NCBI GenBank assembly: GCA_026000155.1
Contig: BNYG01000002.1
Location: 1-64,000, forward strand
Source of the DNA: Bacteroidia bacterium
GTDB taxonomy: Bacteria; Bacteroidota; Bacteroidia; Bacteroidales; Azobacteroidaceae
Direction: 5' to 3'
DNA: 64,000 nt
Shown here: piece after piece, positions 4,100 through 19,597 of the stretch
Position numbering within the stretch: the stretch's first letter is position 1
How the letters are laid out: each line of letters begins with the position of its first letter
Translations under genes and position numbers: made by a program
Notes under the pieces: generated by a model
The model's input: the letters and a program-made list of their open reading frames with translations, nothing else
What the model was told of the DNA's origin: nothing
Database searches by the model: none

Positions 4100-4480
4100 T
4101 TATTTCTTTTCCAACAAACTTTTCAATAAGGCAATTTGTTCGTCTTTGGCTGCGAGATGTTTTTCGTATTGTTCCAACAGTTTATCATAAATATCTTGAT
4201 TTGCAGAATATTGATGCTCTACATTAGCACTTCCTGTATAGGTACATTCATTGTGATTATTAATCACAACTTTTGATTCAATCCCTTCAAAAAACCTTTC
4301 GGGTGTTATCTCAAATATTGTGAGTAAATCCTCAAAATACTTCGCCCATGTATTTGTTTCGCCTTGCTCCAAGCGTGCATAAGCCGATTGTTCAATATGC
4401 AATTTATCTGCCATTTGCAATTGAGTGAAACCTTTATCTCTTCTTAATTTCCGTATTTTTGAAACAATTTGAGTTTGCAT
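4100..4480 (-). CDS. XRE-family helix-turn-helix regulator
   Basis: A 126-residue DNA-binding protein. An HTH_3 (Cro/C1-type) domain occupies about residues 5-62 (IRKLRRDKGFTQLQMADKL, then SAYARLEQGE). The rest is a short coiled coil ending in KSLLEKK, which could dimerise it. The start at 4480 is chosen because the longer frame (to 4528) runs across the promoter-like CAAAAATA box. It points away from the RiPP cluster starting at 4700 and shares its intergenic region, so it is a candidate regulator of that cluster as well as of itself (inference from position only). Confidence 0.85.
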   Translation of the reverse strand: MQTQIVSKIRKLRRDKGFTQLQMADKLHIEQSAYARLEQGETNTWAKYFEDLLTIFEITPERFFEGIESKVVINNHNECTYTGSANVEHQYSANQDIYDKLLEQYEKHLAAKDEQIALLKSLLEKK

Positions 4481-4505
4481 ATCAGTTACTTTTTTAAATA
4501 AAGTA

Positions 4506-4538
4506 CAAAAATAGTATTTTTTATGCAAAAATAGTATT
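4506..4538 (-). promoter_or_regulatory. Promoter/operator region of the XRE gene: direct repeat with two -7-like boxes
   Basis: On the reverse strand AATACTATTTTTG occurs twice, 20 bases apart (4506-4518 and 4526-4538). Each copy contains TATTTTTG, which fits TAnnTTTG. The proximal copy lies 25 bases upstream of the ATG at 4480. The repeat could be a duplicated -7 box or an operator for autoregulation. Confidence 0.4.
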
Positions 4539-4616: not shown

Positions 4617-4647
4617 ATTGCAAAAATAAAAATAATGTATAACTTTG
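4617..4647 (+). promoter_or_regulatory. Promoter of the RiPP cluster (TTG-N19-TAACTTTG)
   Basis: ATTG at 4617-4620 and TAACTTTG at 4640-4647 are separated by 19 bases, the spacing of the Bacteroidota primary promoter. It is 52 bases upstream of the precursor ATG, and I see no comparable promoter further along the cluster. Confidence 0.75.
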
Positions 4648-4699
4648 CAAAACAGAGAATTAATTTTAATTTTTATGTTTTGCGCAAAAAATTAAAAAG

Positions 4700-4993
4700 A
4701 TGAAGAAGTTAGGTAAATTAAAATTGAATCAACTCTCTCAGGCAGAGTTGAACGAACGTGAAATGTGCCTCTTATTGGGAAGCGGAACGCCTGGGGATTG
4801 CAATTGTGGTTGTGGATATGCAAATTCCGGAGGATCTTCTTCTTCCTCTAATTCTTCTGCAAATAATGCACAAGGTTATACAGAAAGCTATGGGTATAGT
4901 GGCGGAAGTGGAGGTTCCTCAACAAATGGTTCTGGACCTGAATGTGGTTATTGGGAAGTAAATTGTACAGGTAGTAATCCTTACTCTTGTTAA
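4700..4993 (+). CDS. GG-Bacteroidales RiPP precursor peptide
   Basis: A 97-residue natural-product precursor. The leader (KLKLNQLSQAELNEREM, then LLLGSG at 24-29) matches the GG-Bacteroidales precursor family (TIGR04149 type). The Gly-Ser-Gly site is the expected cut point for the C39 peptidase of the exporter at 10000. The predicted core (30-97) begins TPGDCNCGCGY, has a long Ser/Gly/Asn/Tyr-rich middle, and ends in a Cys-bearing tail; its cysteines are 34, 36, 38, 82, 89 and 97. A peptide frame in the +1 register is a shadow. Modification enzymes, exporter and glycosyltransferases follow on the same strand. Confidence 0.88.
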   Translation: MKKLGKLKLNQLSQAELNEREMCLLLGSGTPGDCNCGCGYANSGGSSSSSNSSANNAQGYTESYGYSGGSGGSSTNGSGPECGYWEVNCTGSNPYSC

Positions 4994-5079
4994 CTCTCCG
5001 AATGTTGTAAATAATTAATTAATATATCCGGAAGTGTTATGCTATTAATGCTTCTGGATATAAAGTGAAAATCAGTACA

Positions 5080-5916
5080 ATGTATAAATACCTGAATTTG
5101 GTTTTCTGTGCACTTATCTTGTTTTCATGTGGGAACAAAACCAGTTCCGTTTTTTCCATTCCACCGGATGCCATTCCGTTTGATTATTCATTAAGAAATA
5201 TTATTTTGAACGGTTCTATCAACGATACCCTGCCCATCAATGTATTCTTTGATACAGGGGCATCTTTCTCTGCAATAGGATTATGTGATAGTTTGAAAGA
5301 TTTGTTGGGAGAGGATAAACAGTTTTTACAAATAGGAGATATCAAGAAAGAGATGGATGTTTTTTATTTAAAGAGAGAGAATAGTATTTTCCAACGAAGA
5401 GGTACAAATACAGCTTATATAGGATGGCGTTTCTTTGCAGATAATATCTTGGAAATATCTTTTCAACATAAATATATCAGGAAACTAAAAGAAGCGACAG
5501 AACTAAATGGATACAAATGTATAAAAATAGATACTGTACCTTTTTTGAGGATTCCGGTAGAAATATATTTGCAGGAAAAAATGATAAAGGAAGATGTAAT
5601 AATAGATACGGGAAATGATGGATTTCTGGATTTATTTTACAACACGATAAAAAAACATTCAATTCTCATAGATAGTACTCAAACAGAAAAGGTTAATACC
5701 GCTCAAATCGGTTCGTACGAAACTTTTTTTGTGGATGGAGATTCTGTCAAAGCAGGTTATGCCGTTCCCTTTCAATATCATCTTCGATTTTTTAAAGCGC
5801 CTGAATGTCCATTTTCAGGATTAATCGGTACTGCTTTTCTTGACAAATTTGATGTAGTGTTGGATTTGAAAGATTTTTATTTATATTTGAAACCCATTGA
5901 AAAAGAAGAAAAATGA
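5080..5916 (+). CDS. Aspartyl-protease-like lipoprotein in the RiPP cluster
   Basis: A 278-residue lipoprotein. The signal segment ends in LFSC (Cys17). Two retropepsin/pepsin-type catalytic triads are visible, FFDTGAS (Asp58) and VIIDTGND (Asp176), so the chain carries both halves of a two-lobed aspartic protease. ATG 5080 gives a compact signal peptide; a GTG at 5065 adds five residues and cannot be excluded. Placed between precursor and maturase, it may process the exported peptide or act in immunity (inference). Its TGA is the only stop separating it in frame from the next gene. Confidence 0.78.
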   Translation: MYKYLNLVFCALILFSCGNKTSSVFSIPPDAIPFDYSLRNIILNGSINDTLPINVFFDTGASFSAIGLCDSLKDLLGEDKQFLQIGDIKKEMDVFYLKRENSIFQRRGTNTAYIGWRFFADNILEISFQHKYIRKLKEATELNGYKCIKIDTVPFLRIPVEIYLQEKMIKEDVIIDTGNDGFLDLFYNTIKKHSILIDSTQTEKVNTAQIGSYETFFVDGDSVKAGYAVPFQYHLRFFKAPECPFSGLIGTAFLDKFDVVLDLKDFYLYLKPIEKEEK

Positions 5917-5988
5917 TGCAATCCACCTTTTTTTATCCATAGCGAACAAAAAAATGTTTACGTAATTAATATTCACAAGAAGAATATT

Positions 5989-7374
5989 TTGTTGGTGCAT
6001 CCATACATTCCATTTATCCATTTTGAGCGACAAGCAGCCGAAAAAACAATTGAGAGAGAAGATTTTGAATATTATAAAAAAAAGATTGCTTATTATCAAA
6101 GTCACGGAATCATATCCGAAAAGCCGGTTTCAGGCAATGGACAACTCTATCTGTCTCCCGAATTAATAGAAGAAAGTATAAGCAATTTAAAACAGATTGT
6201 ATTTGAAACGACAGAAAAATGCAATCTTCAATGTAAATATTGCTATTACGGAGAATATTACCATACAGCTCCGGAGAGAAAAAATCAGGATATGCCGGTA
6301 GAATACGCAAAAAAAATGATGGAATACCTGTCGAAAAAGCAGTTGTCCGAATTCAATCAATCTTGGAATCATTGGATGTATATCAGTTTTTACGGAGGGG
6401 AACCAATGATGAACATGCCGCTTGTTAAAAGTGTAATTAAAGCAGGTAAAATGAAAAACCGGCAAATAGCTTACTCAATGACCACAAATGCAACTTTGCT
6501 GAATAAAAATGTACCTTTAGTTGTTGATAATGACATTCATCTTACCATCAGTTTAGACGGGAACAAGGAAAACAACAGCTATCGTGTTTTCCGTAACAAG
6601 GCTCAAACTTTTGATAAGATTTTATCTAATCTGAAAAAATTGCAACAACAATATCCAATATATTATGAAAAGAATATCAAATTCAATGCAGTACTTCACA
6701 ACAAAAATTCCGTGCAGGAAATATACGATTTTTTCCAAACGGAATTTAATAAGAAGCCGGCTATTTTGGAGTTAAATAATTCCGGCATTGCAGAAGAAAA
6801 ATCAAATGAATTTTATGCAACCTATCGTAATCGAAATGAAAGTTTAAGTCAATTGGAAAATTATGCACAATTGGAATCAGAATTGTTTTTGGATATGCCT
6901 TCCTATCACTCGGCGCTGATTTTTTTGCATCAATACATTCAATTTGTTTATAAATCGTATGAAGATTTGTTATCAGGAGAAAATAGAATATTATGGACGT
7001 CAACAGGTACCTGTATTCCATTTTCCAGAAAAATATTTATTACGGCAAATGGCAAAATATTGCCTTGCGAAAAAATTGCACAAAAATTTGCATTAGGGAC
7101 GGTAGATGAAAACGGCGTTTATCTGGATGCCACAGAAATTGCAAATAAATACAATACCTATTACAAAACCTTATCGAAACAGTGTGCTGTATGCTATCGT
7201 CAACAAGCATGCAATCAATGTATTTTCTTTCTTGAAAATTTAGAAGACAAGCCCGTATGTCACGGATTTATGGACAAAAACAGTATGCAGAAATATTTGA
7301 CAAACACGATCTCTTTTTTTGAAAATCATCCTCACGATTATTCCCGCATGATGAAAGACGTGATTATATCCTAA
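5989..7374 (+). CDS. Radical SAM/SPASM peptide maturase, GG-Bacteroidales type
   Basis: A radical SAM enzyme of up to 461 residues that should modify the precursor core. The cluster motif CNLQCKYC places the three [4Fe-4S] ligands at Cys78, Cys82 and Cys85. A GGEPM motif follows near 135, and the C-terminal SPASM region is Cys-rich (LPCEK, CAVCYRQQACNQC, KPVC) for auxiliary clusters. There is no ATG near the start: TTG 5989 is used because AAGAAG lies 6 bases upstream; TTG 5992 and GTG 5995 are alternatives. The frame is open back to the stop of the protease at 5914. The family assignment (TIGR04148-like) rests on the neighbourhood as well as the motifs. Confidence 0.85.
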   Translation: MLVHPYIPFIHFERQAAEKTIEREDFEYYKKKIAYYQSHGIISEKPVSGNGQLYLSPELIEESISNLKQIVFETTEKCNLQCKYCYYGEYYHTAPERKNQDMPVEYAKKMMEYLSKKQLSEFNQSWNHWMYISFYGGEPMMNMPLVKSVIKAGKMKNRQIAYSMTTNATLLNKNVPLVVDNDIHLTISLDGNKENNSYRVFRNKAQTFDKILSNLKKLQQQYPIYYEKNIKFNAVLHNKNSVQEIYDFFQTEFNKKPAILELNNSGIAEEKSNEFYATYRNRNESLSQLENYAQLESELFLDMPSYHSALIFLHQYIQFVYKSYEDLLSGENRILWTSTGTCIPFSRKIFITANGKILPCEKIAQKFALGTVDENGVYLDATEIANKYNTYYKTLSKQCAVCYRQQACNQCIFFLENLEDKPVCHGFMDKNSMQKYLTNTISFFENHPHDYSRMMKDVIIS

Positions 7375-7384
7375 TTCAATACAC

Positions 7385-8638
7385 ATGAAACAGCAAGATA
7401 AAATTTATTGGATTGTATTGGAACCCTATGTTCACGTCTCTTTTACCGGGAACGAGGTATTTGTGTATAATACGTTGGATGGTTCGTTTATCGAATCCGG
7501 ATCGAAAAGTATTATTGAATTATTACACAGTATAACAGAAAGTCCCCAAGGTTTAGTTAGCCGAACCGGTTTCTTTTTGGAAGAAGAAACGATGAAAGAT
7601 TTTATTCTGCAACTGCGAAATAAATTTATGGGAGATATAATTGATACCCGATTGAGTCAAGGCTCTCCCATCCAATTATTACCAATACTCAACTTGCAGA
7701 ATAGCGCGGAACGCTTAAAAAACGATGACGAACGAACCGTTGGGGAAAATGTTTTTACTCATTTGCATGAATTACTGATTTTCCTGGACAATCCGGATAC
7801 TTTTCCCACAAAATATTATCCGACTACGTTAAAAGGCCGGATAGAAGAATACCCTCAAATCAATACCGGATTGAATTTCCCAAAAATAAAGAAGTTGTTG
7901 GATCAACTGCCTCCTGCCAAAAAGGATTTGACGGTAAATTTTCTGATGAAAGATTTGTTGGAATACAGGGATTTGGATGAATTAATTTCTTTATTGGAAA
8001 AAATACCGGTCAAAAAGAAGTTTAGTTTCCATTATACGAATTCAAAGATAGAAGCACAAACTTCCCAAATAATGAAAGCGGATATCTGCTTGAATATGTA
8101 TATTGATTTTCCGGTTTGTGAAAATCAATTGCAATCTATAACTAAAGTTTTGGTTCAATTGTCAATCAAGCATGAATGTGTGTTTTTAATTGCTTCGGAC
8201 GAAGATTTTCAATCTGCTGAAGATATGATTACGAAGTATGCGATTGCCCGGTATTCATTTGTTCCCGTTTATACGGGAGATAATGCCGATTTTTTCAAGA
8301 GAAATATCTTTCTTTCAAAAGAAGATATTCTATCTCAACCTGTATCTATGAGGGAAATATTTATACATCAATCATTAAATGTTGAGAATTTTGGAAAACT
8401 GGCGCTTCTCCCGTCCGGAGAGATGTATGCGGATATTTTTTCAAAAAAATTAGGGTCAACATCAGAATATTCTTTATTGGAACTACTTTATAAGGCGATG
8501 GATTCAAACGATTCTTGGTTTAATATTCGAAGTTATGCCCCATGCAGTCATTGCAACTATCAATGGTTGTGTCCATCTCCCTCTTCTTATGAAAGATTAT
8601 TAAACAGAAACAATCTTTGTGAAATAGATAACAAATAA
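7385..8638 (+). CDS. Pseudo-radical-SAM protein, GG-Bacteroidales system
   Basis: A 417-residue partner of the maturase, resembling the pseudo-rSAM family of GG-Bacteroidales clusters (TIGR04150 type). It has no CxxxCxxC cluster motif, so it should not bind SAM chemistry's [4Fe-4S] centre. The C-terminus keeps a degenerate SPASM-like pattern, PCSHCNYQWLCPSPSSYE followed by NLC. It begins 10 bases after the maturase, indicating co-translation. Its likely role is substrate presentation or complex assembly with the active enzyme (inference); no biochemical function is visible from sequence alone. Confidence 0.8.
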   Translation: MKQQDKIYWIVLEPYVHVSFTGNEVFVYNTLDGSFIESGSKSIIELLHSITESPQGLVSRTGFFLEEETMKDFILQLRNKFMGDIIDTRLSQGSPIQLLPILNLQNSAERLKNDDERTVGENVFTHLHELLIFLDNPDTFPTKYYPTTLKGRIEEYPQINTGLNFPKIKKLLDQLPPAKKDLTVNFLMKDLLEYRDLDELISLLEKIPVKKKFSFHYTNSKIEAQTSQIMKADICLNMYIDFPVCENQLQSITKVLVQLSIKHECVFLIASDEDFQSAEDMITKYAIARYSFVPVYTGDNADFFKRNIFLSKEDILSQPVSMREIFIHQSLNVENFGKLALLPSGEMYADIFSKKLGSTSEYSLLELLYKAMDSNDSWFNIRSYAPCSHCNYQWLCPSPSSYERLLNRNNLCEIDNK

Positions 8639-8649
8639 ATTTTAATATC

Positions 8650-9987
8650 ATGGAACAGTATCGTTTAAGCAAGTATAACCATTTTTTGAAAAAAAGAGAA
8701 AAAGTTACCGGTGTGAATTTGTATAATCGACGTCTTTTTTCGATAGATAGGGGAAAATATGATCTATTAATGTCATACAAAACAGATTTGAGTCGGTTGA
8801 AAGAAGAGCAACCTGTTTTATTCAGTACGATGTATAAATTGGGTATTATAGAAGATATTACTATAAATATACCTAACATTCTTTTATTGAAAAACCGGCA
8901 ACAGGTTTTTCAAAATAAAACATATCGTCTGTTTATCAATCCAACATTGAATTGTAATTTTTCCTGTTGGTATTGCTATGAACAGCATAACAAAAAGAGA
9001 ATGAGTAGTGAAGTAATGAATAATACTGTTAAGTATATTGAAAATCTGATAACAAAAGAGAAAATTCAATATCTTCATATTGACTGGTTTGGCGGCGAAC
9101 CTTTATTGTGTTATAAAACAGTGATCAAACCAATCAGCGTGGAAGCACAGCGGATTTGTGAGCAAAACAATGTAAACTTCTGCATGACAATGACCACAAA
9201 CGGTTTTCTGGTAAAACCGGAGATGATTTCTTTTTTCGAAGAACACAAGTACATTCGTTTTCAGATTACCATTGATGGAGATAAAGAAAGTCATAACCGG
9301 ACAAGATTTCAAGGCGACTCTCAAAATGGTTCTTATGATACGATTGTTAATAATATTGGTTTGCTGACCCGACTGCCCAATGTGCGCATCGTATTGAGGA
9401 TCAATTTTACAAGAGAAATTTTATCTCGTTGCGTTCATATCATTGACTGTTTCCCTGAAGAAACAAGAAATAAAATTCAAGTTGATTTGGTACAAGTTTG
9501 GCAAGATAGCCGTCAAAATAAAGATTCGGATTGGAAGGATATTTGGGCAAACGAAAAGAAAATCAAGAATATTTTTCTTGACGCTGGATTCGTGATTCCT
9601 AATCGTAGTTTTGAACACAATAAGTATCATACGTGTTTTGCTGATTTAAATAATGAAGCGATAATTAACTATGATGGAAGAGTTTTTAAATGTACGGCTG
9701 TTGATTTTGAAAATGAAAAAGAAGAAGGTATTTTAAACAATATCGGTGAAATAATTTGGGATGAAGACGCTTTAGGCAAAAGGCTTGCCAAATCACCCTT
9801 TGATAATAAAAAGTGTTTTAAGTGTGATTATTTGCCTATATGTTTCGGAAAATGCAGTACAAATTATTTTATCAGAAAAAAAATGGATAACTGTATCCTC
9901 AGACCTTTACTTAAAGGTAATCTTTATGAAAAAATGAATATTTTTAATAAATCCGATTATAAGATAGCTTACCTTCATCAAATTTAA
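8650..9987 (+). CDS. Second radical SAM/SPASM enzyme of the RiPP cluster
   Basis: A 445-residue radical SAM protein distinct from the first. The cluster motif is CNFSCWYC (Cys102, Cys106, Cys109), followed by WFGGEPLL (about 147-154). The SPASM-like tail has CFADLNN, FKCTAVD and a CFKCDYLPICFGKC run, giving ligands for auxiliary iron-sulphur clusters. About 95 residues precede the radical SAM core and could serve as a leader-recognition region (inference). It begins 11 bases after the pseudo-rSAM gene. Two active radical SAM enzymes in one cluster imply two different modifications or two steps on one core. Confidence 0.88.
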   Translation: MEQYRLSKYNHFLKKREKVTGVNLYNRRLFSIDRGKYDLLMSYKTDLSRLKEEQPVLFSTMYKLGIIEDITINIPNILLLKNRQQVFQNKTYRLFINPTLNCNFSCWYCYEQHNKKRMSSEVMNNTVKYIENLITKEKIQYLHIDWFGGEPLLCYKTVIKPISVEAQRICEQNNVNFCMTMTTNGFLVKPEMISFFEEHKYIRFQITIDGDKESHNRTRFQGDSQNGSYDTIVNNIGLLTRLPNVRIVLRINFTREILSRCVHIIDCFPEETRNKIQVDLVQVWQDSRQNKDSDWKDIWANEKKIKNIFLDAGFVIPNRSFEHNKYHTCFADLNNEAIINYDGRVFKCTAVDFENEKEEGILNNIGEIIWDEDALGKRLAKSPFDNKKCFKCDYLPICFGKCSTNYFIRKKMDNCILRPLLKGNLYEKMNIFNKSDYKIAYLHQI

Positions 9988-9999
9988 TCGAAATTAAGA

Positions 10000-12240
10000 A
10001 TGAAAAAATCTTTCCCACACTATACTCAATTGGACTCCATGGATTGTGGGCCATCCTGTCTCCGTATGATTGCCAAATTTTACGGTCGCAGTTACACACT
10101 CCAAAATTTGCGGGAAAAAAGCTTTATCACTCGTGAGGGTGTAAGTATGCTGGGTATCAGCGATGCCGCCGAAAGCATCGGATTTCATACGCAAGGGGTA
10201 CGTATCACTTTTGAGCAATTAGTTGACGATGTTCCATTACCTTGTATTTTGCATTGGAATCAGAATCATTTTGTGGTGTGCTACGATGTAAAACGCAAAA
10301 GTTCCGGATTGCTTCGCTTCGTTCGCAATGACGACTGCGATTATGCCATTAAAATAGCCGATCCTGCAGGAGAGAAATACACCATGAATAAAGACGAATT
10401 TCTGAAATGCTGGATTAGTACAAAATCGGATGGCAAAGACACGGGAACAGCGTTATTATTAGCTCCTTCTCCCGAATTTTACGATTACGAGGACGACAAA
10501 GAAAAACAGGAGAAAAATTTAAGCTATTACTTCCGTTATTTATTTCCCTATAAGTCGCAATTTGCTCAAATTATTGTCGGGATGATTATCGGCAGTGTGC
10601 TGTCTCTTATTTTTCCATTTCTGACACAAGCGGTTGTTGACCAAGGAATCGGAAACAATAATCTGAATTTTATAACGCTGATTTTGATAGCCCAATTGGT
10701 TTTGTCCATTACACAGATTGGGATGGGTTTTATACAGAGTTGGATATCGCTCCACATGAACACTCGGATTAGTATTTCCCTAATTTCGGATTTTCTTACC
10801 AAATTGATGAAATTACCCCTCCGCTTTTTTGATGCCAAGAATATTGGCGACATTATGCAACGCATTGGCGATCATGGGCGCATACAGGGATTTATGAGTG
10901 GAACGCTGCTTTCTACTCTTTTTTCTTTTGCCAATTTCTTTGTATTTGCCTTTATTATGGCTTACTACAACCTAACCATACTGCTTGTGTTCTTAGCAGG
11001 AAATATATTGTATGTGATTTGGATATTATCGTTTATGCGCTACCGGAAAAAATTGGATCATAAACGTTTTGCCCAATCATCTGCCAATCAAAGCAATATG
11101 ATTCAGTTGATAACCGGTATGCAGGAAATCAAACTCAATAATTGCGAGAAACAACAACGCTGGAAATGGGAGCGCATTCAGGTTAAACTATTTAAAATCA
11201 GTGTTCAAGGTGTCGCATTAGGACAATATCAACAGATAGGGTCTATTTTTTTTAGTCAAACAACAGGCTTACTCATCTCTTTCCTTTCTGCAAAAGCAGT
11301 AGTAGAAGGAGAAATTACCTTGGGTATGATGATGTCTATCGGTTACATTATCGGGCAGTTGTCCGGACCCATTGGACAAGTAATTGGTTTTGCTCAATCC
11401 TTACAAGATGCTAAAATAAGTTTGGAGCGATTGAATGAAATCCACAATAAAGAAGATGAAGAACAAACGATTGAAAATACAATAAACGAACTTCCCGAAA
11501 ATAAAACGATCCGGATAGAAAATGTTTATTTTAGCTACGATGGCGCCGAACGCGATTACGTATTGGAAGATTTGAGTTTGACTATTCCACAAAACAAAAT
11601 AACCGCCATTGTTGGAGCCAGCGGCAGTGGAAAAACGACCATCATCAAATTGCTGCTGGGTTTTTATCCACCCTTGAAAGGTGTTATTAAAGCAGGTAAT
11701 ATGAATATAGAGGAAATTAATCCGCATCTGTGGCGACAAAAATCCGGAGCGGTTATGCAGGACGGTTTTATTTTTTCCGACACCATTGCCAATAATATTG
11801 CCGTAGGGGTGGAAGAGGTGGATAAAAAACGACTTTTACATGCTGTTGAAACGGCTAATATCAAGGAATTTATCGAATCCTTGCCCTTGAAATACAATAC
11901 CAAAATCGGCATGGAAGGCAATGGCATCAGTCAGGGACAACGGCAACGACTGTTGATTGCAAGAGCCGTTTATAAAAATCCGGATTTTATCTTTTTGGAT
12001 GAAGCTACTAATGCCTTGGATACCAATAACGAACGGATTATTATGGATAATCTAAACAGATTTTATAAAGGAAAAACGGTAGTAATTGTAGCGCATCGAT
12101 TAAGTACGGTACAAAATGCAGATAGTATTATTGTATTGGACAAAGGAAAAATTGTAGAAGAGGGAACACATAAAGAATTGACAGCAAAGAAAGGAGCGTA
12201 TTATACCTTGGTGAAAAATCAGTTGGAATTGGGAACATGA
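10000..12240 (+). CDS. C39-peptidase ABC exporter (PCAT) for the RiPP
   Basis: A 746-residue peptidase-containing ABC transporter that should cut the leader and export the core. The C39 domain has DCGPSC with catalytic Cys16, His90 (QNHF) and Asp121 (ADPAG). Six transmembrane segments follow (about 180-460), then the ATPase with Walker A GASGSGKTT, signature ISQGQRQR, Walker B FLDEAT and switch His in VAHRL. Residues about 101-113 (SSGLLRFVRNDDC) are a repeat-derived insertion between His90 and Asp121; see 10306-10333. Its neighbour is the HlyD adaptor, forming a type I-like export route. Confidence 0.95.
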   Translation: MKKSFPHYTQLDSMDCGPSCLRMIAKFYGRSYTLQNLREKSFITREGVSMLGISDAAESIGFHTQGVRITFEQLVDDVPLPCILHWNQNHFVVCYDVKRKSSGLLRFVRNDDCDYAIKIADPAGEKYTMNKDEFLKCWISTKSDGKDTGTALLLAPSPEFYDYEDDKEKQEKNLSYYFRYLFPYKSQFAQIIVGMIIGSVLSLIFPFLTQAVVDQGIGNNNLNFITLILIAQLVLSITQIGMGFIQSWISLHMNTRISISLISDFLTKLMKLPLRFFDAKNIGDIMQRIGDHGRIQGFMSGTLLSTLFSFANFFVFAFIMAYYNLTILLVFLAGNILYVIWILSFMRYRKKLDHKRFAQSSANQSNMIQLITGMQEIKLNNCEKQQRWKWERIQVKLFKISVQGVALGQYQQIGSIFFSQTTGLLISFLSAKAVVEGEITLGMMMSIGYIIGQLSGPIGQVIGFAQSLQDAKISLERLNEIHNKEDEEQTIENTINELPENKTIRIENVYFSYDGAERDYVLEDLSLTIPQNKITAIVGASGSGKTTIIKLLLGFYPPLKGVIKAGNMNIEEINPHLWRQKSGAVMQDGFIFSDTIANNIAVGVEEVDKKRLLHAVETANIKEFIESLPLKYNTKIGMEGNGISQGQRQRLLIARAVYKNPDFIFLDEATNALDTNNERIIMDNLNRFYKGKTVVIVAHRLSTVQNADSIIVLDKGKIVEEGTHKELTAKKGAYYTLVKNQLELGT
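10306..10333. repeat. Dispersed-type repeat lying in frame inside the C39 exporter gene
   Basis: The 28 bases begin GGATTGCTTCGC and end TTCGCAATGACG. ATTGC and GCAAT form the outer arms. The pattern is the GGATTGC...GCAATGACG type of repeat common between genes in Bacteroidota, related to the GGATTGCGGG repeats elsewhere in this window. It is translated as about SGLLRFVRND and does not break the frame. Confidence 0.65.
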
Positions 12241-12266
12241 AACCTCGGATATAAGAATACAAACAG

Positions 12267-13565
12267 ATGAATGAAGAAGAAAACATAGAACTGCGAAGCG
12301 AAGAATTTCAAGAAGTGCTTGGAGGTGTTCCGCCGTGGATATTGCGGTGGGGAATAACCATTTTAGCTATTATCGTGATTATTCTTTTGATTGGAAGCGC
12401 TATTCTCAAATATCCCGATATTATTTCCTCCCGGATTGTTTTGACCGGTTCTGTTCCGCCTGCCGGAATTGTTGCCCGTGCCTCCGGCAAATTGAAAGAA
12501 TTGTATGTAGTCGATAATCAAGGCGTCAAATCCGGAGATTATTTGGCGGTCATTGATAATCCGGCTCATACCCAAGATATTCTGACTTTAAAAGAATACA
12601 TGGATCGTTTGGATATTGACAAAGACTCGCTTCTTTTCCTGCCGGAAAAAGAACTCCGGGTGGGTAATTTGCAATCTGTTTATTCCTCGTTTTACATCTG
12701 TCTTTTTGATTATTTAGAATACAAACGCTTGTTGTATTATCCCCAAAAGATAGAGATGACGCGAGAGCGTATTGTCCAATATGAAGAACAGTACCGGAAT
12801 TTACTTCACCAACAGCAACTGACGAATGAACAATTTACTCTTACCCAAAAACAATTTCAACGGGATTCCTTATTACGTTCCAATGGTGTTATTTCGCAAG
12901 AAGAATTAGAGAAATCCCAAAGTGTATATGTGCAAAGCAAGTTATCTAACGAAAACATGCGCTCTTCTTTGAATAATATGAAAATACAAATTGCACAATT
13001 GAAAGAATCTCTGTTGGATACGGGACATCAGGATATTGAAGCGCTCAACGGATTGCGTACGCAACTTCAATCGTTGATTTCTCAAGTTAAAACGGAAATA
13101 CAGGCGTGGGAAATAAGCTACGTATTGAAAGCTCCGATCAATGGTAGAATTACTTTTACCAACTATTGGATAATGAATCAAAACGTATCGGCAGGGGAAG
13201 ATATATTTACGATTATTCCCGGCAATGTATTTTCGGTAATAGGTAAGGCTTCGCTTCCCGTTGCCCGTTCGGGAAAAGTAGAAATCGGGCAAAAAGTAAA
13301 TATCCGGATAGAGAATTTTCCGGAGAATGAATACGGCATTTTGAGAGGGAAGGTCGAAAATATTTCGCTCGTTCCTACTCAGTCGAGCGAATTGATTTAT
13401 TACACAGTTGAGATCAGTTTTCCCGATAAATTGATTACTACCTACAAAAAAGAATTACCCTATTTGCCCAATATGCAAGGGCAGGCAGATATTATTACAG
13501 AAGATATTTCTTTGTTGGAACGGTTTGTTTTGCCCATCAAGAAAATTTTAAAAGAAAGGATATGA
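12267..13565 (+). CDS. HlyD-family periplasmic adaptor
   Basis: A membrane fusion protein of 432 residues that should link the C39 ABC exporter to an outer-membrane channel. A cytoplasmic N-tail (about 1-26) is followed by one transmembrane helix (about 27-50), a biotinyl-lipoyl half-domain (GKLKELYVVDNQGVKSGDYL), a long alpha-helical hairpin rich in Gln/Glu/Leu (about 165-275), and the second lipoyl half with beta-barrel (VLKAPINGRITF to the C-terminus). The start is 26 bases after the exporter stop and the end overlaps the LanC-like gene by 4 bases. No TolC-type gene is in the cluster. Confidence 0.9.
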   Translation: MNEEENIELRSEEFQEVLGGVPPWILRWGITILAIIVIILLIGSAILKYPDIISSRIVLTGSVPPAGIVARASGKLKELYVVDNQGVKSGDYLAVIDNPAHTQDILTLKEYMDRLDIDKDSLLFLPEKELRVGNLQSVYSSFYICLFDYLEYKRLLYYPQKIEMTRERIVQYEEQYRNLLHQQQLTNEQFTLTQKQFQRDSLLRSNGVISQEELEKSQSVYVQSKLSNENMRSSLNNMKIQIAQLKESLLDTGHQDIEALNGLRTQLQSLISQVKTEIQAWEISYVLKAPINGRITFTNYWIMNQNVSAGEDIFTIIPGNVFSVIGKASLPVARSGKVEIGQKVNIRIENFPENEYGILRGKVENISLVPTQSSELIYYTVEISFPDKLITTYKKELPYLPNMQGQADIITEDISLLERFVLPIKKILKERI

Positions 13566-14200
13566 AGTCTGATGATGAAATTTTACAACGCATTGCCCGC
13601 TATCTGATGTTGCATGGCAGTTTTACAAACAACATTGGACTTTTGAATGGAAAAACCGGCATTGCCCTGTTTTTATACCACTATTTCCGATATACAGGGA
13701 AAAAGTTGTATGATGATTTTGCCGGTGAACTGATAGATGAAATTTATAAGGAAATCCATTTAGAAACACCCTTGAATTTCAAAGATGGACTTTGCGGGAT
13801 AGCTTGGGGTATGGAATATCTGATTAAAAATCGTTTTGTTGATGCCAATCCGGATGAGATATTGGAAGATTTGGATAAACGGATTGTTGAATGGGACGTC
13901 AGGCGCATAACGGATCATTCTTTGGAAACCGGATTAAAAGGAATTGCCGTTTATGTAACCAGTCGATGTGAAAATAGAGGAAAGGATAATCCTTATATTA
14001 CAAAGGAATATATTCGGGATTTAATTGAAGTTTTGAAAAATAGCAAGGACAATATCTACGATGATAAAATCAATCCGGTTTATAATATCGTGGCTCAAAT
14101 CAAATACAAATCAATCTTTAAAAATACAAGACCATTGGGGATTGATGAATCGGGATATGCCGGAATTGGTTTGCAATTAATGGAAATTCACAAACTATGA
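13562..14200 (+). CDS. Short LanC-like protein
   Basis: A 212-residue protein resembling the N-terminal half of lanthionine-synthetase C-like proteins: GKTGIALFLYHY, DGLCGIAWGMEYLI and GLKGIAVYV are the repeated Gly-rich helix caps of the alpha/alpha toroid, and GYAGIGLQLMEI closes the chain. Full LanC proteins are about 400 residues and carry a Cys-Cys-His zinc site that is absent here. It may be catalytically inactive or have a structural role. It overlaps its neighbours by 4 bases on both sides, so truncation by a recent nonsense change seems less likely than a stable short form. Confidence 0.75.
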   Translation: MKSDDEILQRIARYLMLHGSFTNNIGLLNGKTGIALFLYHYFRYTGKKLYDDFAGELIDEIYKEIHLETPLNFKDGLCGIAWGMEYLIKNRFVDANPDEILEDLDKRIVEWDVRRITDHSLETGLKGIAVYVTSRCENRGKDNPYITKEYIRDLIEVLKNSKDNIYDDKINPVYNIVAQIKYKSIFKNTRPLGIDESGYAGIGLQLMEIHKL

Positions 14201-15441
14201 AAAAAAGGCGAATCTATATCTTTAATAAAACAGCAAAAGGCGCAAATTATGGCATTGGAACCTATATCAAGCAATTGACAACCGTTCTGAAAGATTCAGA
14301 TTTGGATGTTACGATTGTGCACCTATACACTCAGGGCAATGAAATGGATGTTGAAGAAAAACAAGATTATCGGCAAATATACATTCCCTCTCCCTCTTCG
14401 AGAACAAAGAATTCGAGGAGCTATTATAATCGAAACATTGCCTACTTGCTGAAAGAGTTTATTTCTGACGATAAAGAAACAGAAATTATTTTCCAACTCA
14501 ACTTTATGGACAATGAAGATTTAATTGTCTATCTGAAAGAGTTTTTCAAATGCAAAACGATTTTAGTTGCTCATTATACGGATTGGAGTTTTGCTCTATT
14601 CGGTGATTATGCAAGATTAAAAGTGATAGTAGAACGACCTCCAAGCACATTAAAAAAACCGGTTGAAAAATCGGTTGAAAAAAATTTCAAGGGAAATTTG
14701 AAAATGATAAAGAAAGCCGACAAATTTGTTTGCGTAGCAAAGCACACATCCGATATATTCCAAAGCTTGGGGAATGTTTCCAAAGAAAAAATAGAAATAA
14801 TCAACAATGCCCTGGAAGATGTTTATATTCCATTAACAGAGAAAAAAAAGACCGCTTTACGTAAAAAATATTGCATAGATGAAAATACAAAAATAATCCT
14901 TTTTGTCGGACGTTTGGATGACGTAAAAGGAGTTAATTTTTTGATTAAAGCTTTTCAAAGAGTAATAATCACCCACTCTAATGTCCGGTTGTTTATTGCA
15001 GGCGATACGATTGATTTTAAAGACTTGTTGAAAGAATCCGCCGACTGCTGGTCGAAAATCAGTTTTACCGGTTTTTTAGAGAAAAAGACGCTGTATGAAT
15101 TTTATCAGATAGCCGACATAGGCGTGGTTTGTTCCCTGCACGAAGAATTCGGATTGGTCGCTATTGAAATGATGATGCACACCTTGCCTCTTATCGTTAC
15201 CAAAACCGGCGGTTTGGATGAAATTGTAGAAGATACGGTTTCCGGTCTTAAAGTCCCGGTAAGAACAATTAGAGGCAAACGACAAGTGGATGTGAAATGT
15301 TTGGCTGATAAGATGGCTTTTTTATTGGATAATCCCATGGTGGCGAAAGAATTGGGCGTAAATGGACGAAAGCGATTTTTGGAAAAATACGGATTATCCT
15401 TATTCAGCGAGAAGATGTTGAACCTATATAATAATTTGTAA
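14197..15441 (+). CDS. GT4-type glycosyltransferase, GG-Bacteroidales peptide system
   Basis: A 414-residue GT-B glycosyltransferase. The C-terminal group 1 domain has the nucleotide-sugar region ILFVGRLDDVKGVNFLIKAF (about 231-250) and the E-x7-E motif region HEEFGLVAIEMM. The N-terminus (IYIFNKTAKGANYGIGTYI) resembles the glycosyltransferases found in GG-Bacteroidales peptide clusters (TIGR04157 type). It is cytoplasmic. Its place in the operon suggests transfer of a sugar to the peptide before export (inference); the sugar and acceptor residue are unknown. It overlaps the LanC-like gene by 4 bases. Confidence 0.85.
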   Translation: MKKRRIYIFNKTAKGANYGIGTYIKQLTTVLKDSDLDVTIVHLYTQGNEMDVEEKQDYRQIYIPSPSSRTKNSRSYYNRNIAYLLKEFISDDKETEIIFQLNFMDNEDLIVYLKEFFKCKTILVAHYTDWSFALFGDYARLKVIVERPPSTLKKPVEKSVEKNFKGNLKMIKKADKFVCVAKHTSDIFQSLGNVSKEKIEIINNALEDVYIPLTEKKKTALRKKYCIDENTKIILFVGRLDDVKGVNFLIKAFQRVIITHSNVRLFIAGDTIDFKDLLKESADCWSKISFTGFLEKKTLYEFYQIADIGVVCSLHEEFGLVAIEMMMHTLPLIVTKTGGLDEIVEDTVSGLKVPVRTIRGKRQVDVKCLADKMAFLLDNPMVAKELGVNGRKRFLEKYGLSLFSEKMLNLYNNL

Positions 15442-15442
15442 T

Positions 15443-17095
15443 ATGGAAAATAAATTGGTCTATGACACAAATACGCCAATTCTCTTTTTGATTTTTAACC
15501 GTCCGGAAACAAGCCGGCAGGTTTTTTCTCAAATCAAAAAAGTAAAACCGCAGCGATTGTATATTGCCACAGACGGTCCTCGTTCTCCGGAAGAGAAAAT
15601 CAAATGCGAGGAAACCCGGAAAATCGTTTTTGAAATAGATTGGGAATGTAGCGTAGAAACGCTTTTCCCCGAGGAAAACGTAGGACGTGGAAAAGCCATC
15701 AGTCAAGCCATCTCTTGGTTCTTTGAACAGGAATCGGAAGGAATTGTTTTGGAAGAGGATTGCTTGCCCTCGGACAGCTTTTTCGGCTTTTGTTCCGCAT
15801 TGCTTGAAAAATACAGGGACGATGACCGAATCGGACATATCTCAGGTGGAAACTACCAAAAAGGAATTGTCCGTGGAGACGGTAGCTATTATTTTTCAGC
15901 GTTGACACATGTCTGGGGATGGGCGGGATGGCGTCGGGTATGGAAGGATTATGATTTGGAAATTAATACATTACCTGTTTTTGATAAATTAAATTATCTC
16001 GAAAAAATGCCTGTTCACGGGCCTTTTAAAAATTATTGGAAGCAACAATTGTATTTTCATTATCAATATAAGGAGCAAAAACATTTCTGGACTTTTCCGT
16101 ATGCTTACCATAATCTTATCAATAATCGGTTATCCATTATTCCAAACGTCAATCTGATTAGCATTATCGGTTATTCGACAAAAAACAATCCAACCAATTA
16201 TTTTCCAAACCATCCTTTTGCATATATACCTTTGGGAGAATTAAAAGAATTGAGACACCCCTCATTTGTACTGAATGACATTGTTGCCGATTTATATTCA
16301 CAATCCATAGAATTAAACAAACCGGTACCTTCTAGCCTCAACAGCGATTATTTTTTTCTCAAAGAAAAACTTTTGAAAATACCTGCCGAAGTCTATCCGT
16401 TGAAAATACCCCGAATTATTCACCAAATATATGAAGACCCATCAGGCCCACCTGAACATTTAATTACAGTATCTGAAACATGGAAAACTTGTCATCCGCA
16501 TTGGGAATATCGGTTTTGGAACAAGCAAGCAATTGAAGATTTCTTAGAATCTGTTTTTCCCGATTTCATCCCTTGTTATTACGCTTTCCCTTTTGATGTG
16601 CAACGCTGGGATGCCATACGTTACCTTATTCTGTATCATTTTGGCGGATTATATGCCGACATGGATTATGAATGTTTAGAGCCTCTGGATGCATTGTTGA
16701 ATGATTCTATTTGTTGCATGGGCATGGAACCGGAAGAAAATGCCATTACTCATCATCGGGATATGATTATCGGGAATGCGCTGATGGCATCTGTTCCGGG
16801 TCATCCTTATTTCAAAATGATTATCGATGATATGCGGCAGAATGATATTCATATAACCCATAAAGCAACACAAATTATGGAAACCACTGGCCCATTTATG
16901 GTTACCAGAATTTATAAAAATTATCCGGAAAAATCGGAAATCACACTTTTGCCCGCAGAATTAATAGCACCACTAACTTTAGAAGAAGTCCGCAAAATTA
17001 TGTCCGAACAGGAAACACAATCCTTAGAGGATAAAGTGGAAAAAGCATTTGCAATACATTATTTTTTCGGATCATGGATGCCACAAACTATCTAA
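15443..17095 (+). CDS. Two-domain glycosyltransferase (GT2-like plus GT32/DXD domain)
   Basis: A 550-residue fusion of two glycosyltransferase domains. Residues about 10-260 look like a GT-A nucleotide-sugar transferase (TPILFLIFNRPETSRQ near the start, VLEEDCLPS as acidic motif). Residues about 320-550 are a GT32/OCH1-like domain: PRIIHQIYED, DVQRWDAIRYLILYHFGG and the DXD motif in YADMDYE. Such fusions could build a disaccharide on one acceptor. It starts one base after the preceding stop and is the last gene of the cluster. No membrane segment is visible. Confidence 0.85.
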   Translation: MENKLVYDTNTPILFLIFNRPETSRQVFSQIKKVKPQRLYIATDGPRSPEEKIKCEETRKIVFEIDWECSVETLFPEENVGRGKAISQAISWFFEQESEGIVLEEDCLPSDSFFGFCSALLEKYRDDDRIGHISGGNYQKGIVRGDGSYYFSALTHVWGWAGWRRVWKDYDLEINTLPVFDKLNYLEKMPVHGPFKNYWKQQLYFHYQYKEQKHFWTFPYAYHNLINNRLSIIPNVNLISIIGYSTKNNPTNYFPNHPFAYIPLGELKELRHPSFVLNDIVADLYSQSIELNKPVPSSLNSDYFFLKEKLLKIPAEVYPLKIPRIIHQIYEDPSGPPEHLITVSETWKTCHPHWEYRFWNKQAIEDFLESVFPDFIPCYYAFPFDVQRWDAIRYLILYHFGGLYADMDYECLEPLDALLNDSICCMGMEPEENAITHHRDMIIGNALMASVPGHPYFKMIIDDMRQNDIHITHKATQIMETTGPFMVTRIYKNYPEKSEITLLPAELIAPLTLEEVRKIMSEQETQSLEDKVEKAFAIHYFFGSWMPQTI

Positions 17096-18129: not shown

Positions 18130-18137
18130 TATATTTG
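18130..18137 (+). promoter_or_regulatory. Probable -7 box, TATATTTG, of the McrB-like gene
   Basis: TATATTTG fits TAnnTTTG. It overlaps the GTG at 18137 that would be the longest start of the McrB-like frame, which argues for a start at ATG 18152 or 18173. Confidence 0.45.
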
Positions 18138-18172
18138 TGGACAACAATGGTATGACAAAAACAATAGAAATT

Positions 18173-19597
18173 ATGGATAAGCAAATATTTACAGAGATTC
18201 TGAAATTTTTTACAAAAATGGCTCAGGCAAAAATTTATGCCAGGTCGCAATTACAAGGAAAGTACAACTATACGAGGGTTGATACTACTCATAATGTTAT
18301 ATCAAAAGTTTATAAAAAAGAAGATAATATTAAACATTATGAGGAAATTGATGCTTCTTGGTTTGATAAAGGATTGAAGTGTATTCATTTTATGAATGGA
18401 AATGCACAAAACAAGAATCGCGCCTTTCGACATGCTAATTTTCATATCTATAATCCTAATTTGCAAACCTACCTTGCCATTGAAATCGGACCAATTTTTT
18501 CTGAAAATAAAACTTTGGATAACAGTAGCGATGATAATTATGATACTATTTGCGGATATTATGTAACGCTTTTTGAGACAGGATATGAAAAACATAAAAA
18601 TATAGATAAACAAACAAAAGATTATGACAAAGAATTTTACAAAACGTTTGCTCTAACTGATATTGATGGTATATATGCTTATGTGAATGAATTATTGTCT
18701 AAAATTCCTCAAAACATGAAACCGGATAATCCTTTTTTGAATAGTGTTATTGAACTGCTCCAATCAAACGGAAATATAATTTTAACAGGTGCTCCCGGAA
18801 CGGGTAAAACTTATTTGGCAAAGCAAATTGCCGAAGCGATGAAGGCAGAATCGGCTTTTGTACAATTCCATCCCTCCTACGATTATACCGACTTTGTAGA
18901 AGGATTACGACCAACGTCACCTGATGATAATGGAAATATAGGTTTTGAACGGACAAACGGTGTATTTAAAGATTTTTGTAAAAAAGCATTAGCCGATTGT
19001 AAATACAAAGACGTTGATACCAAGCCTGTGTTTGATGAAGAAAATAGTAAAAAATTCATTTTCATCATTGACGAAATAAATCGTGGCGAAAAGGGCAAAG
19101 TACAAACGCAATATCAAAATTTGGTGACAGAAAAAGATAAAAATGGCAAAGATGAACCATTTTACAAAGGTTTTTATGTTCCAGAAAATGTATATATCAT
19201 TGGTACTATGAATGATATAGACCGTAGCGTTGAAAGTTTTGATTTTGCAATGCGGAGGAGGTTTACTTGGAAAGAAATAAAAGCAGAAGACAGCCAAAAA
19301 ATGTTTGAAAATGAAGATTGGAAAGACGAGGCAATCAAACGAATGAATTCCTTAAATAATGCAATTTCTAACATTCAAGGACTTGGCTCGGCGTATCACA
19401 TTGGGGCAGCATATTTCAAAAATAATTTACCAAAATATACCGATAATCCATTGGAAAATGTGTGGAATTATCATTTAAAACCTCTTTTGTTTGAGTACTT
19501 GCGTGGAATGCCTGATGCCGAAACAAAATTAAAAGAATTAGAAAATGCCTATAATTTAAAATCAAATACAACCAATGAGCAAGGAACTTCAAATTAG
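18173..19597 (+). CDS. McrB-like AAA+ ATPase/GTPase without an McrC partner
   Basis: A 474-residue AAA+ protein resembling the motor of McrBC-type restriction. The N-terminal ~190 residues are a putative DNA- or substrate-recognition domain with no recognised family. The AAA+ core has Walker A GAPGTGKT (206-213), Walker B FIFIIDEINRGE, a sensor region IIGTMNDIDRS, and the Arg-rich FAMRRRF. Starts at 18137, 18152 and 18173 are possible; 18173 clears the -7 box. No mcrC gene follows; instead rhuM overlaps by 23 bases. Either the nuclease is supplied elsewhere or the protein works with RhuM (inference). Confidence 0.85.
   Translation: MDKQIFTEILKFFTKMAQAKIYARSQLQGKYNYTRVDTTHNVISKVYKKEDNIKHYEEIDASWFDKGLKCIHFMNGNAQNKNRAFRHANFHIYNPNLQTYLAIEIGPIFSENKTLDNSSDDNYDTICGYYVTLFETGYEKHKNIDKQTKDYDKEFYKTFALTDIDGIYAYVNELLSKIPQNMKPDNPFLNSVIELLQSNGNIILTGAPGTGKTYLAKQIAEAMKAESAFVQFHPSYDYTDFVEGLRPTSPDDNGNIGFERTNGVFKDFCKKALADCKYKDVDTKPVFDEENSKKFIFIIDEINRGEKGKVQTQYQNLVTEKDKNGKDEPFYKGFYVPENVYIIGTMNDIDRSVESFDFAMRRRFTWKEIKAEDSQKMFENEDWKDEAIKRMNSLNNAISNIQGLGSAYHIGAAYFKNNLPKYTDNPLENVWNYHLKPLLFEYLRGMPDAETKLKELENAYNLKSNTTNEQGTSN

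What the first reader, a model, noticed from the sequence alone, without database searches (positions are those of the whole stretch)
4617..17095. Large GG-Bacteroidales RiPP cluster with two radical SAM enzymes, a pseudo-radical SAM partner and two glycosyltransferases
Seen: one precursor, aspartyl-protease lipoprotein, maturase, pseudo-rSAM, second radical SAM, C39 exporter, HlyD, short LanC-like, GT4-type and a two-domain GT, all on one strand with tiny gaps or 4-base overlaps behind a single clear promoter. Known: GG-Bacteroidales systems pair such a precursor with a maturase and pseudo-rSAM. Inference: an additional radical SAM step plus glycosylation would give a glycosylated, multiply modified peptide, a product type I cannot name.
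Basis: partly seen in the sequence, partly recalled or inferred. Interest (0 to 1): 0.82.

Follow-up and report, generated by a model that had tools for sequence, protein, structure and literature searches.

The report
Glycopeptide-type RiPP cluster with added maturase
A bacterium of the Bacteroidales kind carries a gene cluster for a small secreted peptide that seems to be modified by two radical enzymes of different families, each probably working on its own part of the peptide, and perhaps decorated with sugars; most of the set is a known kind, but the second enzyme and the matching peptide tail are a new variant.

Summary
In detail: ten co-directional genes (4700-17095) encode a TIGR04149 precursor, an aspartyl-protease-like lipoprotein, a TIGR04148 maturase, a TIGR04150 pseudo-rSAM, a second radical SAM/SPASM enzyme (rSAM2), C39 exporter and HlyD, a LanC-like protein and two glycosyltransferases. 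Most of this is ordinary: LanC-like and glycosyltransferase genes recur in such clusters, and hybrids of that sort are in print (PMC10352776). The unusual part is rSAM2, of a family otherwise seen as sole maturase beside short Cys-rich peptides. Of 68 other sampled TIGR04148/TIGR04150 loci 3 have it; there, as in the window, the precursor has a Cys-bearing C-terminal tail (5 of 6 precursors, against 1 of 72 elsewhere). A precursor-profile search then found a decayed fifth case. The rSAM2 tree rejects one clade for the hybrids (AU p 1e-6), pointing to two separate pairings. Best reading: a two-module precursor, the CxCxC/GGSS part processed by the standard pair, the tail cross-linked by rSAM2 (probably thioether), then perhaps glycosylated, and exported. 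Chemistry is unproven; of the three other intact hybrids only L040 has the full LanC-like/glycosyltransferase set. The LanC-like protein lacks zinc-ligand motifs. New variant of a known kind.

The parts
4100..4528 (-). divergent HTH protein, possible regulator; not part of the operon
   Evidence: Pfam HTH_19/HTH_3
4618..4647 (+). Bacteroidota-type promoter match TTG-N19-TAACTTTG
   Evidence: pattern scan; consensus recalled
4700..4993 (+). precursor peptide, 97 aa, TIGR04149
   Evidence: 53.2 bits, cut-off 25
4700..4783 (+). leader (residues 1-28, ...NEREMCLLLGS); C39 cleavage after G27-S28 inferred
   Evidence: TIGR04149 match covers residues 1-46; alignment A3
4784..4879 (+). core module 1 (residues 29-60), GTPGDCNCGCGYANSGG...ANNAQGY, resembling the core start of many TIGR04149 precursors
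   Evidence: alignments and lists
4940..4990 (+). core module 2, C-terminal Cys tail (residues 81-97), ECGYWEVNCTGSNPYSC
   Evidence: C-x5-8-C at the end in 5 of 6 precursors of rSAM2 loci against 1 of 72 (L085) elsewhere; C82 and C97 invariant and C89 nearly so in A3
5065..5916 (+). lipoprotein with two DTG motifs, aspartyl-protease-like
   Evidence: Asp_protease_2 and TIGR03698 matches below their cut-offs; 19-21% identical to lipoproteins near the precursors of L040, L052 and L140, 35-37% to those of L141
5989..7374 (+). radical SAM/SPASM maturase, TIGR04148 (rSAM1)
   Evidence: 473.9 bits, cut-off 300; CxxxCxxC at residue 78
7385..8638 (+). TIGR04150 pseudo-radical SAM partner; no CxxxCxxC here
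   Evidence: 352.7 bits; Cys positions; tree
8650..9987 (+). second radical SAM/SPASM enzyme (rSAM2); N-terminal strands and helices resemble an RRE (my reading)
   Evidence: Pfam Radical_SAM; CxxxCxxC and six C-terminal Cys invariant in 50 aligned sequences; model pLDDT 90, best PDB match 5why/5wgg
10000..12240 (+). C39-peptidase ABC exporter
   Evidence: Pfam Peptidase_C39, ABC_membrane, ABC_tran
12267..13565 (+). HlyD-type membrane fusion protein
   Evidence: Pfam HlyD_3
13562..14200 (+). short LanC-like protein without zinc-ligand motifs; possible accessory of the glycosyltransferase
   Evidence: Pfam LANC_like 32 bits, cut-off 23; 24 of 25 GT4 loci have one; model matches LanC folds in part
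14197..15441 (+). GT4-type glycosyltransferase, TIGR04157
   Evidence: 444.1 bits, cut-off 400
15443..17095 (+). 550-aa protein: N-terminal half unassigned by Pfam (GT2-like by eye), C-terminal DXD sugar-transferase domain
   Evidence: Pfam Gly_transf_sug 337-420; PDB 9n3s, an alpha-1,6-mannosyltransferase, residues 286-418

Best explanation
An operon for a secreted RiPP, probably glycosylated, with a two-module precursor. Module 1 (GTPG-CxCxC-Y...GGSS...ANNAxGY) is the substrate of the standard TIGR04148 maturase with its TIGR04150 partner. Module 2 (tail ECGYWEVNCTGSNPYSC) is the substrate of rSAM2, a CteB-like SPASM enzyme from another family of Cys-rich-peptide maturases; it most likely forms one or more Cys-to-carbon thioether links there. 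The LanC-like protein helps the TIGR04157 GT, and the two-domain GT adds further sugar, probably at the Ser/Asn-rich stretch. The C39/HlyD exporter removes the leader near LLGS and exports the product. Shown: gene content, order, families, intact metal-binding motifs of both radical SAM enzymes, the rSAM2-tail association in the sample, and two placements of the hybrids' rSAM2. Inferred: which enzyme modifies which part, thioether chemistry, glycosylation of the peptide, the cleavage site, and the role (antagonism or signalling).
For: Families and motifs. rSAM2 tracks the precursor tail: C-x(5-8)-C within 4 residues of the end in 5 of 6 precursors of rSAM2 loci (window included; two of the five are near-copies in L140) against 1 of 72 in loci without it; by locus 4 of 4 against 0 of 58 for tail plus MC leader (the type was defined after seeing the loci and loci are related, so the p of 2e-6 is optimistic). 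Out of sample: the precursor profile (393, 123 and 45 genomes, overlapping) gave 9 new loci; the one with a near full-length match and a Cys tail (L141) carries rSAM2 and maturase remnants, the other 8 show no rSAM2. rSAM2's nearest relative with known surroundings (44-46% identical, L048, no TIGR04148 or TIGR04150 match) lies beside a short GG-leader peptide ending CGSKSGTYC, the same C-x7-C end as the window's CTGSNPYSC. 13 of 17 rSAM2 loci outside GG clusters that I checked have a Cys-bearing small ORF nearby (the filter itself asked for two Cys). The CteB structures are the best match by sequence and fold. GT and LanC-like genes go together (Fisher p 6e-9).
Against: No chemistry or expression data. 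The rSAM2/tail link rests on four intact loci and one decayed one, three of them from one rSAM2 clade. L141's precursor has the tail but neither the MC nor the GTPG feature. In L140 the maturase/TIGR04150 pair is on the opposite strand and groups elsewhere in both trees, so it may serve another peptide. The window's rSAM2 is only 33-36% identical to that of the intact hybrids, so enzyme and tail need not have moved together. Closer rSAM2 relatives exist in the protein database (83, 61, 57%) whose surroundings I could not see. L040 shows no C39/HlyD match within 19.9 kb; L052 and L140 lack LanC-like matches and a full GT4. Nothing ties the sugars to the peptide directly.
Confidence: 0.48

Rival explanations
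1. rSAM2 acts on module 1 (the CxCxC region) or on both modules, in relay with the TIGR04148 enzyme; the tail Cys are free, disulfide-bonded or used by other enzymes.
For: Some rSAM2 homologues outside GG clusters lie beside peptides with CxC or CxCxC motifs (L001, L051), which module 1 resembles. The window's TIGR04150 partner lost its CxxxCxxC, so a second active radical SAM enzyme could replace a lost step.
Against: Cores resembling module 1 are common in clusters without rSAM2, the tail is not. In the three other intact hybrids the TIGR04150 protein keeps CxxxCxxC, so rSAM2 is not simply a substitute.
Confidence: 0.25
2. The peptide is processed as in ordinary GG clusters and rSAM2 is a recent passenger without effect on it.
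For: The gene set without rSAM2 exists elsewhere: L112 and L119 have the same order without it, with 78% identical C39. The congener copy in L141 is decayed.
Against: rSAM2 sits mid-operon with 11-12 base gaps and intact metal motifs, and rSAM2s of two separate placements accompany this precursor type.
Confidence: 0.12
3. The glycosyltransferases and LanC-like protein build a surface glycan or act on another protein; the peptide itself is not glycosylated. (Compatible with the rSAM2 reading above.)
For: 32 of 68 loci have neither LanC-like nor GT4 match (some are cut by contig ends), and two of the three other intact hybrids lack the full set; such GT domains are common in surface polysaccharide loci (recalled).
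Against: NCBI names TIGR04157 for this context (glyco_rSAM_CFB); the LanC-like gene overlaps HlyD and GT4 by 4 bases; the Ser/Asn/Gly-rich core offers acceptor sites.
Confidence: 0.3

Closest known systems
GG-Bacteroidales systems (TIGR04149 precursor, TIGR04148 maturase, TIGR04150 pseudo-rSAM)
   Same: All three families met over curated cut-offs; exporter, LanC-like and GT genes recur in other such loci.
   Different: A second radical SAM enzyme of another family and a Cys-tail precursor; leader ends LLGS instead of GG.
Bacteroidales rSAM + LanC-like (+ glycosyltransferase) RiPP clusters: 41 rSAM+LanC+GlyS areas and BGC3-5 of PMC10352776 (passages and section 13 read)
   Same: Pseudo-rSAM and LanC-like proteins without zinc ligands in BGC3-5, a glycosyltransferase in BGC3; BGC5 has two rSAM genes and CAZymes.
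   Different: The parts I read describe no second rSAM tied to a precursor tail; BGC3 and BGC5 lack a C39 exporter. Whether BGC5's two rSAMs are of one family I did not test.
CteB, a ranthipeptide maturase (PDB 5wgg/5why; name from a passage of PMC10352776)
   Same: Closest solved relative of both radical SAM enzymes by sequence and of rSAM2 by fold over nearly the full length.
   Different: About 20% identity; different substrate sequence; no product known here.
RiPPs made with two radical SAM enzymes: ruminococcin C (PMC6779426, PMC8188230) and thuricin CD (PMC12093266); search listing and abstract starts only
   Same: Two radical SAM enzymes in one pathway.
   Different: No pseudo-rSAM or sugar enzymes are mentioned in the abstract starts I saw; here the two enzymes are of different families.

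Membership tests
GG-Bacteroidales RiPP system | TIGR04149 precursor | tested here: met
   53.2 bits, cut-off 25
GG-Bacteroidales RiPP system | TIGR04148 maturase with CxxxCxxC | tested here: met
   473.9 bits; CNLQCKYC at residue 78
GG-Bacteroidales RiPP system | TIGR04150 partner | tested here: met
   352.7 bits; no CxxxCxxC
GG-Bacteroidales RiPP system | double-Gly leader end | tested here: not met
   LLGSG in the window; GG in most relatives, not all. The family model itself is passed; that C39 enzymes tolerate GS is recalled.
Ranthipeptide / thioether RiPP | SPASM radical SAM maturase with auxiliary-cluster Cys | tested here: met
   C329, C348, C389, C392, C398, C402 invariant in 50 aligned sequences; C415 also in the window. 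Pfam's SPASM model did not match rSAM2.
Ranthipeptide / thioether RiPP | Cys to C-beta or C-gamma thioether in the product | not testable with these tools
   needs mass spectrometry or NMR
Class I lanthipeptide | LanC zinc ligands | tested here: not met
   no CHG or WCxG motif in 38 of 38 LanC-like proteins of the loci; none in the window's own sequence
Class I lanthipeptide | LanB dehydratase | tested here: not met
   none among the 10 cluster genes and 9 neighbouring ORFs scanned; rest of the genome not searched
Glycosylated RiPP | peptide-directed glycosyltransferase in the cluster | tested here: inconclusive
   TIGR04157 GT and Gly_transf_sug protein present; acceptor unknown
Glycosylated RiPP | sugar on the peptide | not testable with these tools
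   needs mass spectrometry

The most novel reading that the evidence does not exclude
A modular RiPP class whose core is built from two separately recognised segments, each with its own radical SAM enzyme, so that a tail and a maturase of another family can be added to a GG-Bacteroidales peptide; this arose at least twice, and here the product carries two kinds of radical-made links plus sugars.
Probability: 0.33. Interest if true: 0.72.

Novelty: new variant of a known kind. Interest (0 to 1): 0.5.

Why it matters
If right, it is a natural example of two radical SAM systems combined on one peptide by adding a tail, of use for peptide engineering and for learning what the widespread but uncharacterised GG-Bacteroidales peptides are. 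It gives a concrete test: which enzyme acts on which segment.

Tried and rejected
Lanthipeptide reading of the LanC-like gene: rejected; no zinc-ligand motif in 38 of 38 relatives nor in the window's own sequence, no dehydratase among the ORFs scanned; fold only partly LanC-like. rSAM2 as a second TIGR04148 enzyme: rejected; in that family's search it scores 51 bits against a cut-off of 300 and its relatives outside the hybrids have no TIGR04150 match. One origin of the hybrids' rSAM2: rejected by the AU test, p 1.1e-6 (the group was set by locus type, but I had already seen the identities and the tree). Plasmid relatives: none for the related precursor P0024. A PDB sequence search of the LanC-like protein gave only hits with E over 0.3. 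Two or more Cys in the last 25 residues is not specific to the hybrids (5 of 6 against 26 of 72), so I use the narrower end motif. The first CxxxCxxC count for TIGR04150 (whole proteins) was repeated on the canonical region with the same number, 30 of 67.

Rows dropped and limits: the gene-content count uses 68 fetched loci with a TIGR04148-like hit over 500 bases at 29% or more and a TIGR04150 hit; L014 was dropped as a copy of L052; L046, L047, L078 and L120 lacked one of the two. Hits over 150 bases count, so some C39 entries match only the ATPase part (L108, L109) and some LanC or GT4 entries are partial. Loci are often cut by contig ends, so absences are upper bounds. In some searches at most 4 candidates a genome were scored. 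The rSAM2 tree uses hits longer than 880 bases: broken or partial copies in L008, L056, L060, L062, L063 and L071 were left out, L061 stayed in as a shortened row. The TIGR04150 tree drops rows of 360 residues or fewer. The maturase and TIGR04150 trees are quick searches with SH-aLRT support only.
Full report
What is there. The window (contig C2 of an unnamed assembly of 2.85 Mb in 282 contigs) holds ten co-directional genes from 4700 to 17095. NCBIfam and Pfam assign the precursor (TIGR04149), maturase (TIGR04148), partner (TIGR04150), TIGR04157 glycosyltransferase, C39 exporter and HlyD; the LanC-like protein passes Pfam's cut-off weakly; the lipoprotein stays below cut-offs; rSAM2 is a radical SAM protein below the cut-offs of the 25 families shown of 52 matched; the last gene has a C-terminal Gly_transf_sug domain. 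The own genome has one TIGR04149 match. One rSAM2 relative is named from Candidatus Azobacteroides (P0053, 51%), which suggests, but does not prove, kinship of the host.

What is ordinary. I searched for TIGR04148 in 45 genomes of the own family, 393 of the order and 123 of the family of G289 (the sets overlap) and fetched the surroundings of the stronger matches. In 68 loci with both TIGR04148- and TIGR04150-like genes, tblastn finds a match to the LanC-like gene in 35, to C39 in 30, to the TIGR04157-type GT in 25, to HlyD in 20 and to the two-domain GT in 7 (some matches are partial). 24 of the 25 GT loci also match the LanC-like gene, the exception being L052 (Fisher p 6e-9; loci are related, so this is a guide). 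L112 and L119 have the window's order without rSAM2, with 78% identical C39. PMC10352776 (passages and section 13 read) lists 41 rSAM+LanC+GlyS areas among 1,340 and clusters with pseudo-rSAM, LanC-like proteins lacking zinc ligands, and glycosyltransferases. PMC4573289 (passages) describes simpler TIGR04149/TIGR04150 clusters.

What is not. rSAM2 was found in 3 of those 68 loci (L040, L052, L140). In 393 genomes of the order 24 have a match at E up to 1e-30. Of 29 fetched rSAM2 loci other than L040 and L052 none matches TIGR04150 and 22 have a C39 match; of the 8 from named genomes none matches TIGR04150 and 7 have C39. Of 17 such loci checked, 13 have a Cys-bearing small ORF nearby (the filter asked for two Cys). 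The precursors of the intact hybrids are of one type: an MC before the cleavage region, GTPG, CxCxC, GGSS-like and ANNA-like stretches, and a Cys tail. C-x(5-8)-C at the very end occurs in 5 of 6 precursors from rSAM2 loci (window included; the sixth, in L052, is a second, ordinary precursor; two of the five are near-copies in L140) and in 1 of 72 from other loci (L085). The GTPGxCxCxC motif occurs in 1 of 72 (L125, whose contig ends about 350 bases later), and L124 has an MC leader without the tail. Two or more Cys in the last 25 residues is not specific (5 of 6 against 26 of 72).

Out-of-sample check. The precursor profile A3, run over the same genomes, gave four genomes with scores over 100 bits, all hybrids and all rows of the profile, then a gap to 76 bits. 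All nine further loci were fetched (the tenth region, L150, re-fetches L140). One, L141 in a congener, has a near full-length match with a Cys tail, though without the MC and GTPG features; beside it lie three lipoprotein copies, an N-terminal rSAM2 piece (132 residues, 58% identical to the window's and up to 87% to database proteins) and short rSAM2 and maturase remnants: a decayed hybrid. The other eight show no rSAM2; some, such as L142, are short contigs.

Origins. In a 37-row tree the hybrids' rSAM2 fall in two places: L040, L052 and L140 together (100/100), and the window with L048, which has no TIGR04148 or TIGR04150 match (100/99). One clade is rejected (AU p 1.1e-6; tree seen before the test). 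The tree needs two changes of the label but cannot tell gain from loss; two gains are the simplest reading. Closer database relatives of the window's rSAM2 (83, 61, 57%) could not be placed in context. In the quick TIGR04150 tree the window lies in a 17-row clade without CxxxCxxC (95), L040 and L052 in a 12-row clade that keeps it (98); in the quick maturase tree the window lies in the same loose 13-row group (91) as L040 and L052, and L140 elsewhere. This fits a mosaic cluster but does not prove one.

Mechanism. rSAM2 has CxxxCxxC and six invariant C-terminal Cys in 50 aligned sequences (47 of the 120 database hits listed, the window, L040 and L052). Its model (pLDDT 90) begins with strands and helices like a RiPP recognition element (my reading) and matches the CteB structures best. 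The peptide next to its relative in L048 ends CGSKSGTYC; the window's tail ends CTGSNPYSC, both C-x7-C at the very end. I therefore assign the tail to rSAM2 and module 1 to the TIGR04148/TIGR04150 pair; this is inference. The LanC-like protein aligns to LanC folds over about 165 of some 400 residues and lacks zinc-ligand motifs; its tie to the GT suggests an accessory role. The lipoprotein is related (19-21% identity, conserved DTG) to those near the precursors in L040, L052 and L140, which add a PDZ match, above cut-off only in L052; it may be an immunity or processing factor.

A side result. The TIGR04150 family is only partly pseudo: 30 of 66 full-length members keep CxxxCxxC at the canonical place, including those of L040, L052 and L140, and the tree needs 8 changes, at least 5 forced by starred branches.

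Literature. Seven searches of the held library listed no paper whose title or abstract start describes this hybrid; apart from the parts named of PMC10352776 and PMC4573289 I read no paper. Most subscription journals and preprints are outside the library, so this is no proof of novelty.

Verdict. A real, largely ordinary cluster of a known kind with an unusual, recurring addition: a new variant of a known kind, interest 0.5.

Noticed in passing
TIGR04150 members in L040-L140 (66 full-length rows, window included): The so-called pseudo-rSAM family is mixed: 30 of 66 keep a canonical CxxxCxxC and 36 do not; the tree needs 8 changes, so the name misleads for nearly half of this sample.
   Followed up: partly
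L141 (G394, same genus), 9146-13307: Decayed hybrid cluster: precursor with Cys tail, three lipoprotein copies, truncated rSAM2 and a short maturase remnant.
   Followed up: yes
L060 (own genome, C3), 5155-10568: Another locus in the same genome with C39 and HlyD 69% identical to the window's and an rSAM2-like stretch with an in-frame stop.
   Followed up: no
L049 (own genome, C17), 4844-11512: An rSAM2 relative without GG maturase in the same genome, with C39, HlyD and a small GG peptide with Cys.
   Followed up: no
L043 (G428), 5956-13972: Two TIGR04148/TIGR04150 pairs in tandem, each preceded by its own precursor.
   Followed up: no
18137-20603: AAA ATPase gene followed by a RhuM-family gene downstream of the cluster.
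   Followed up: no
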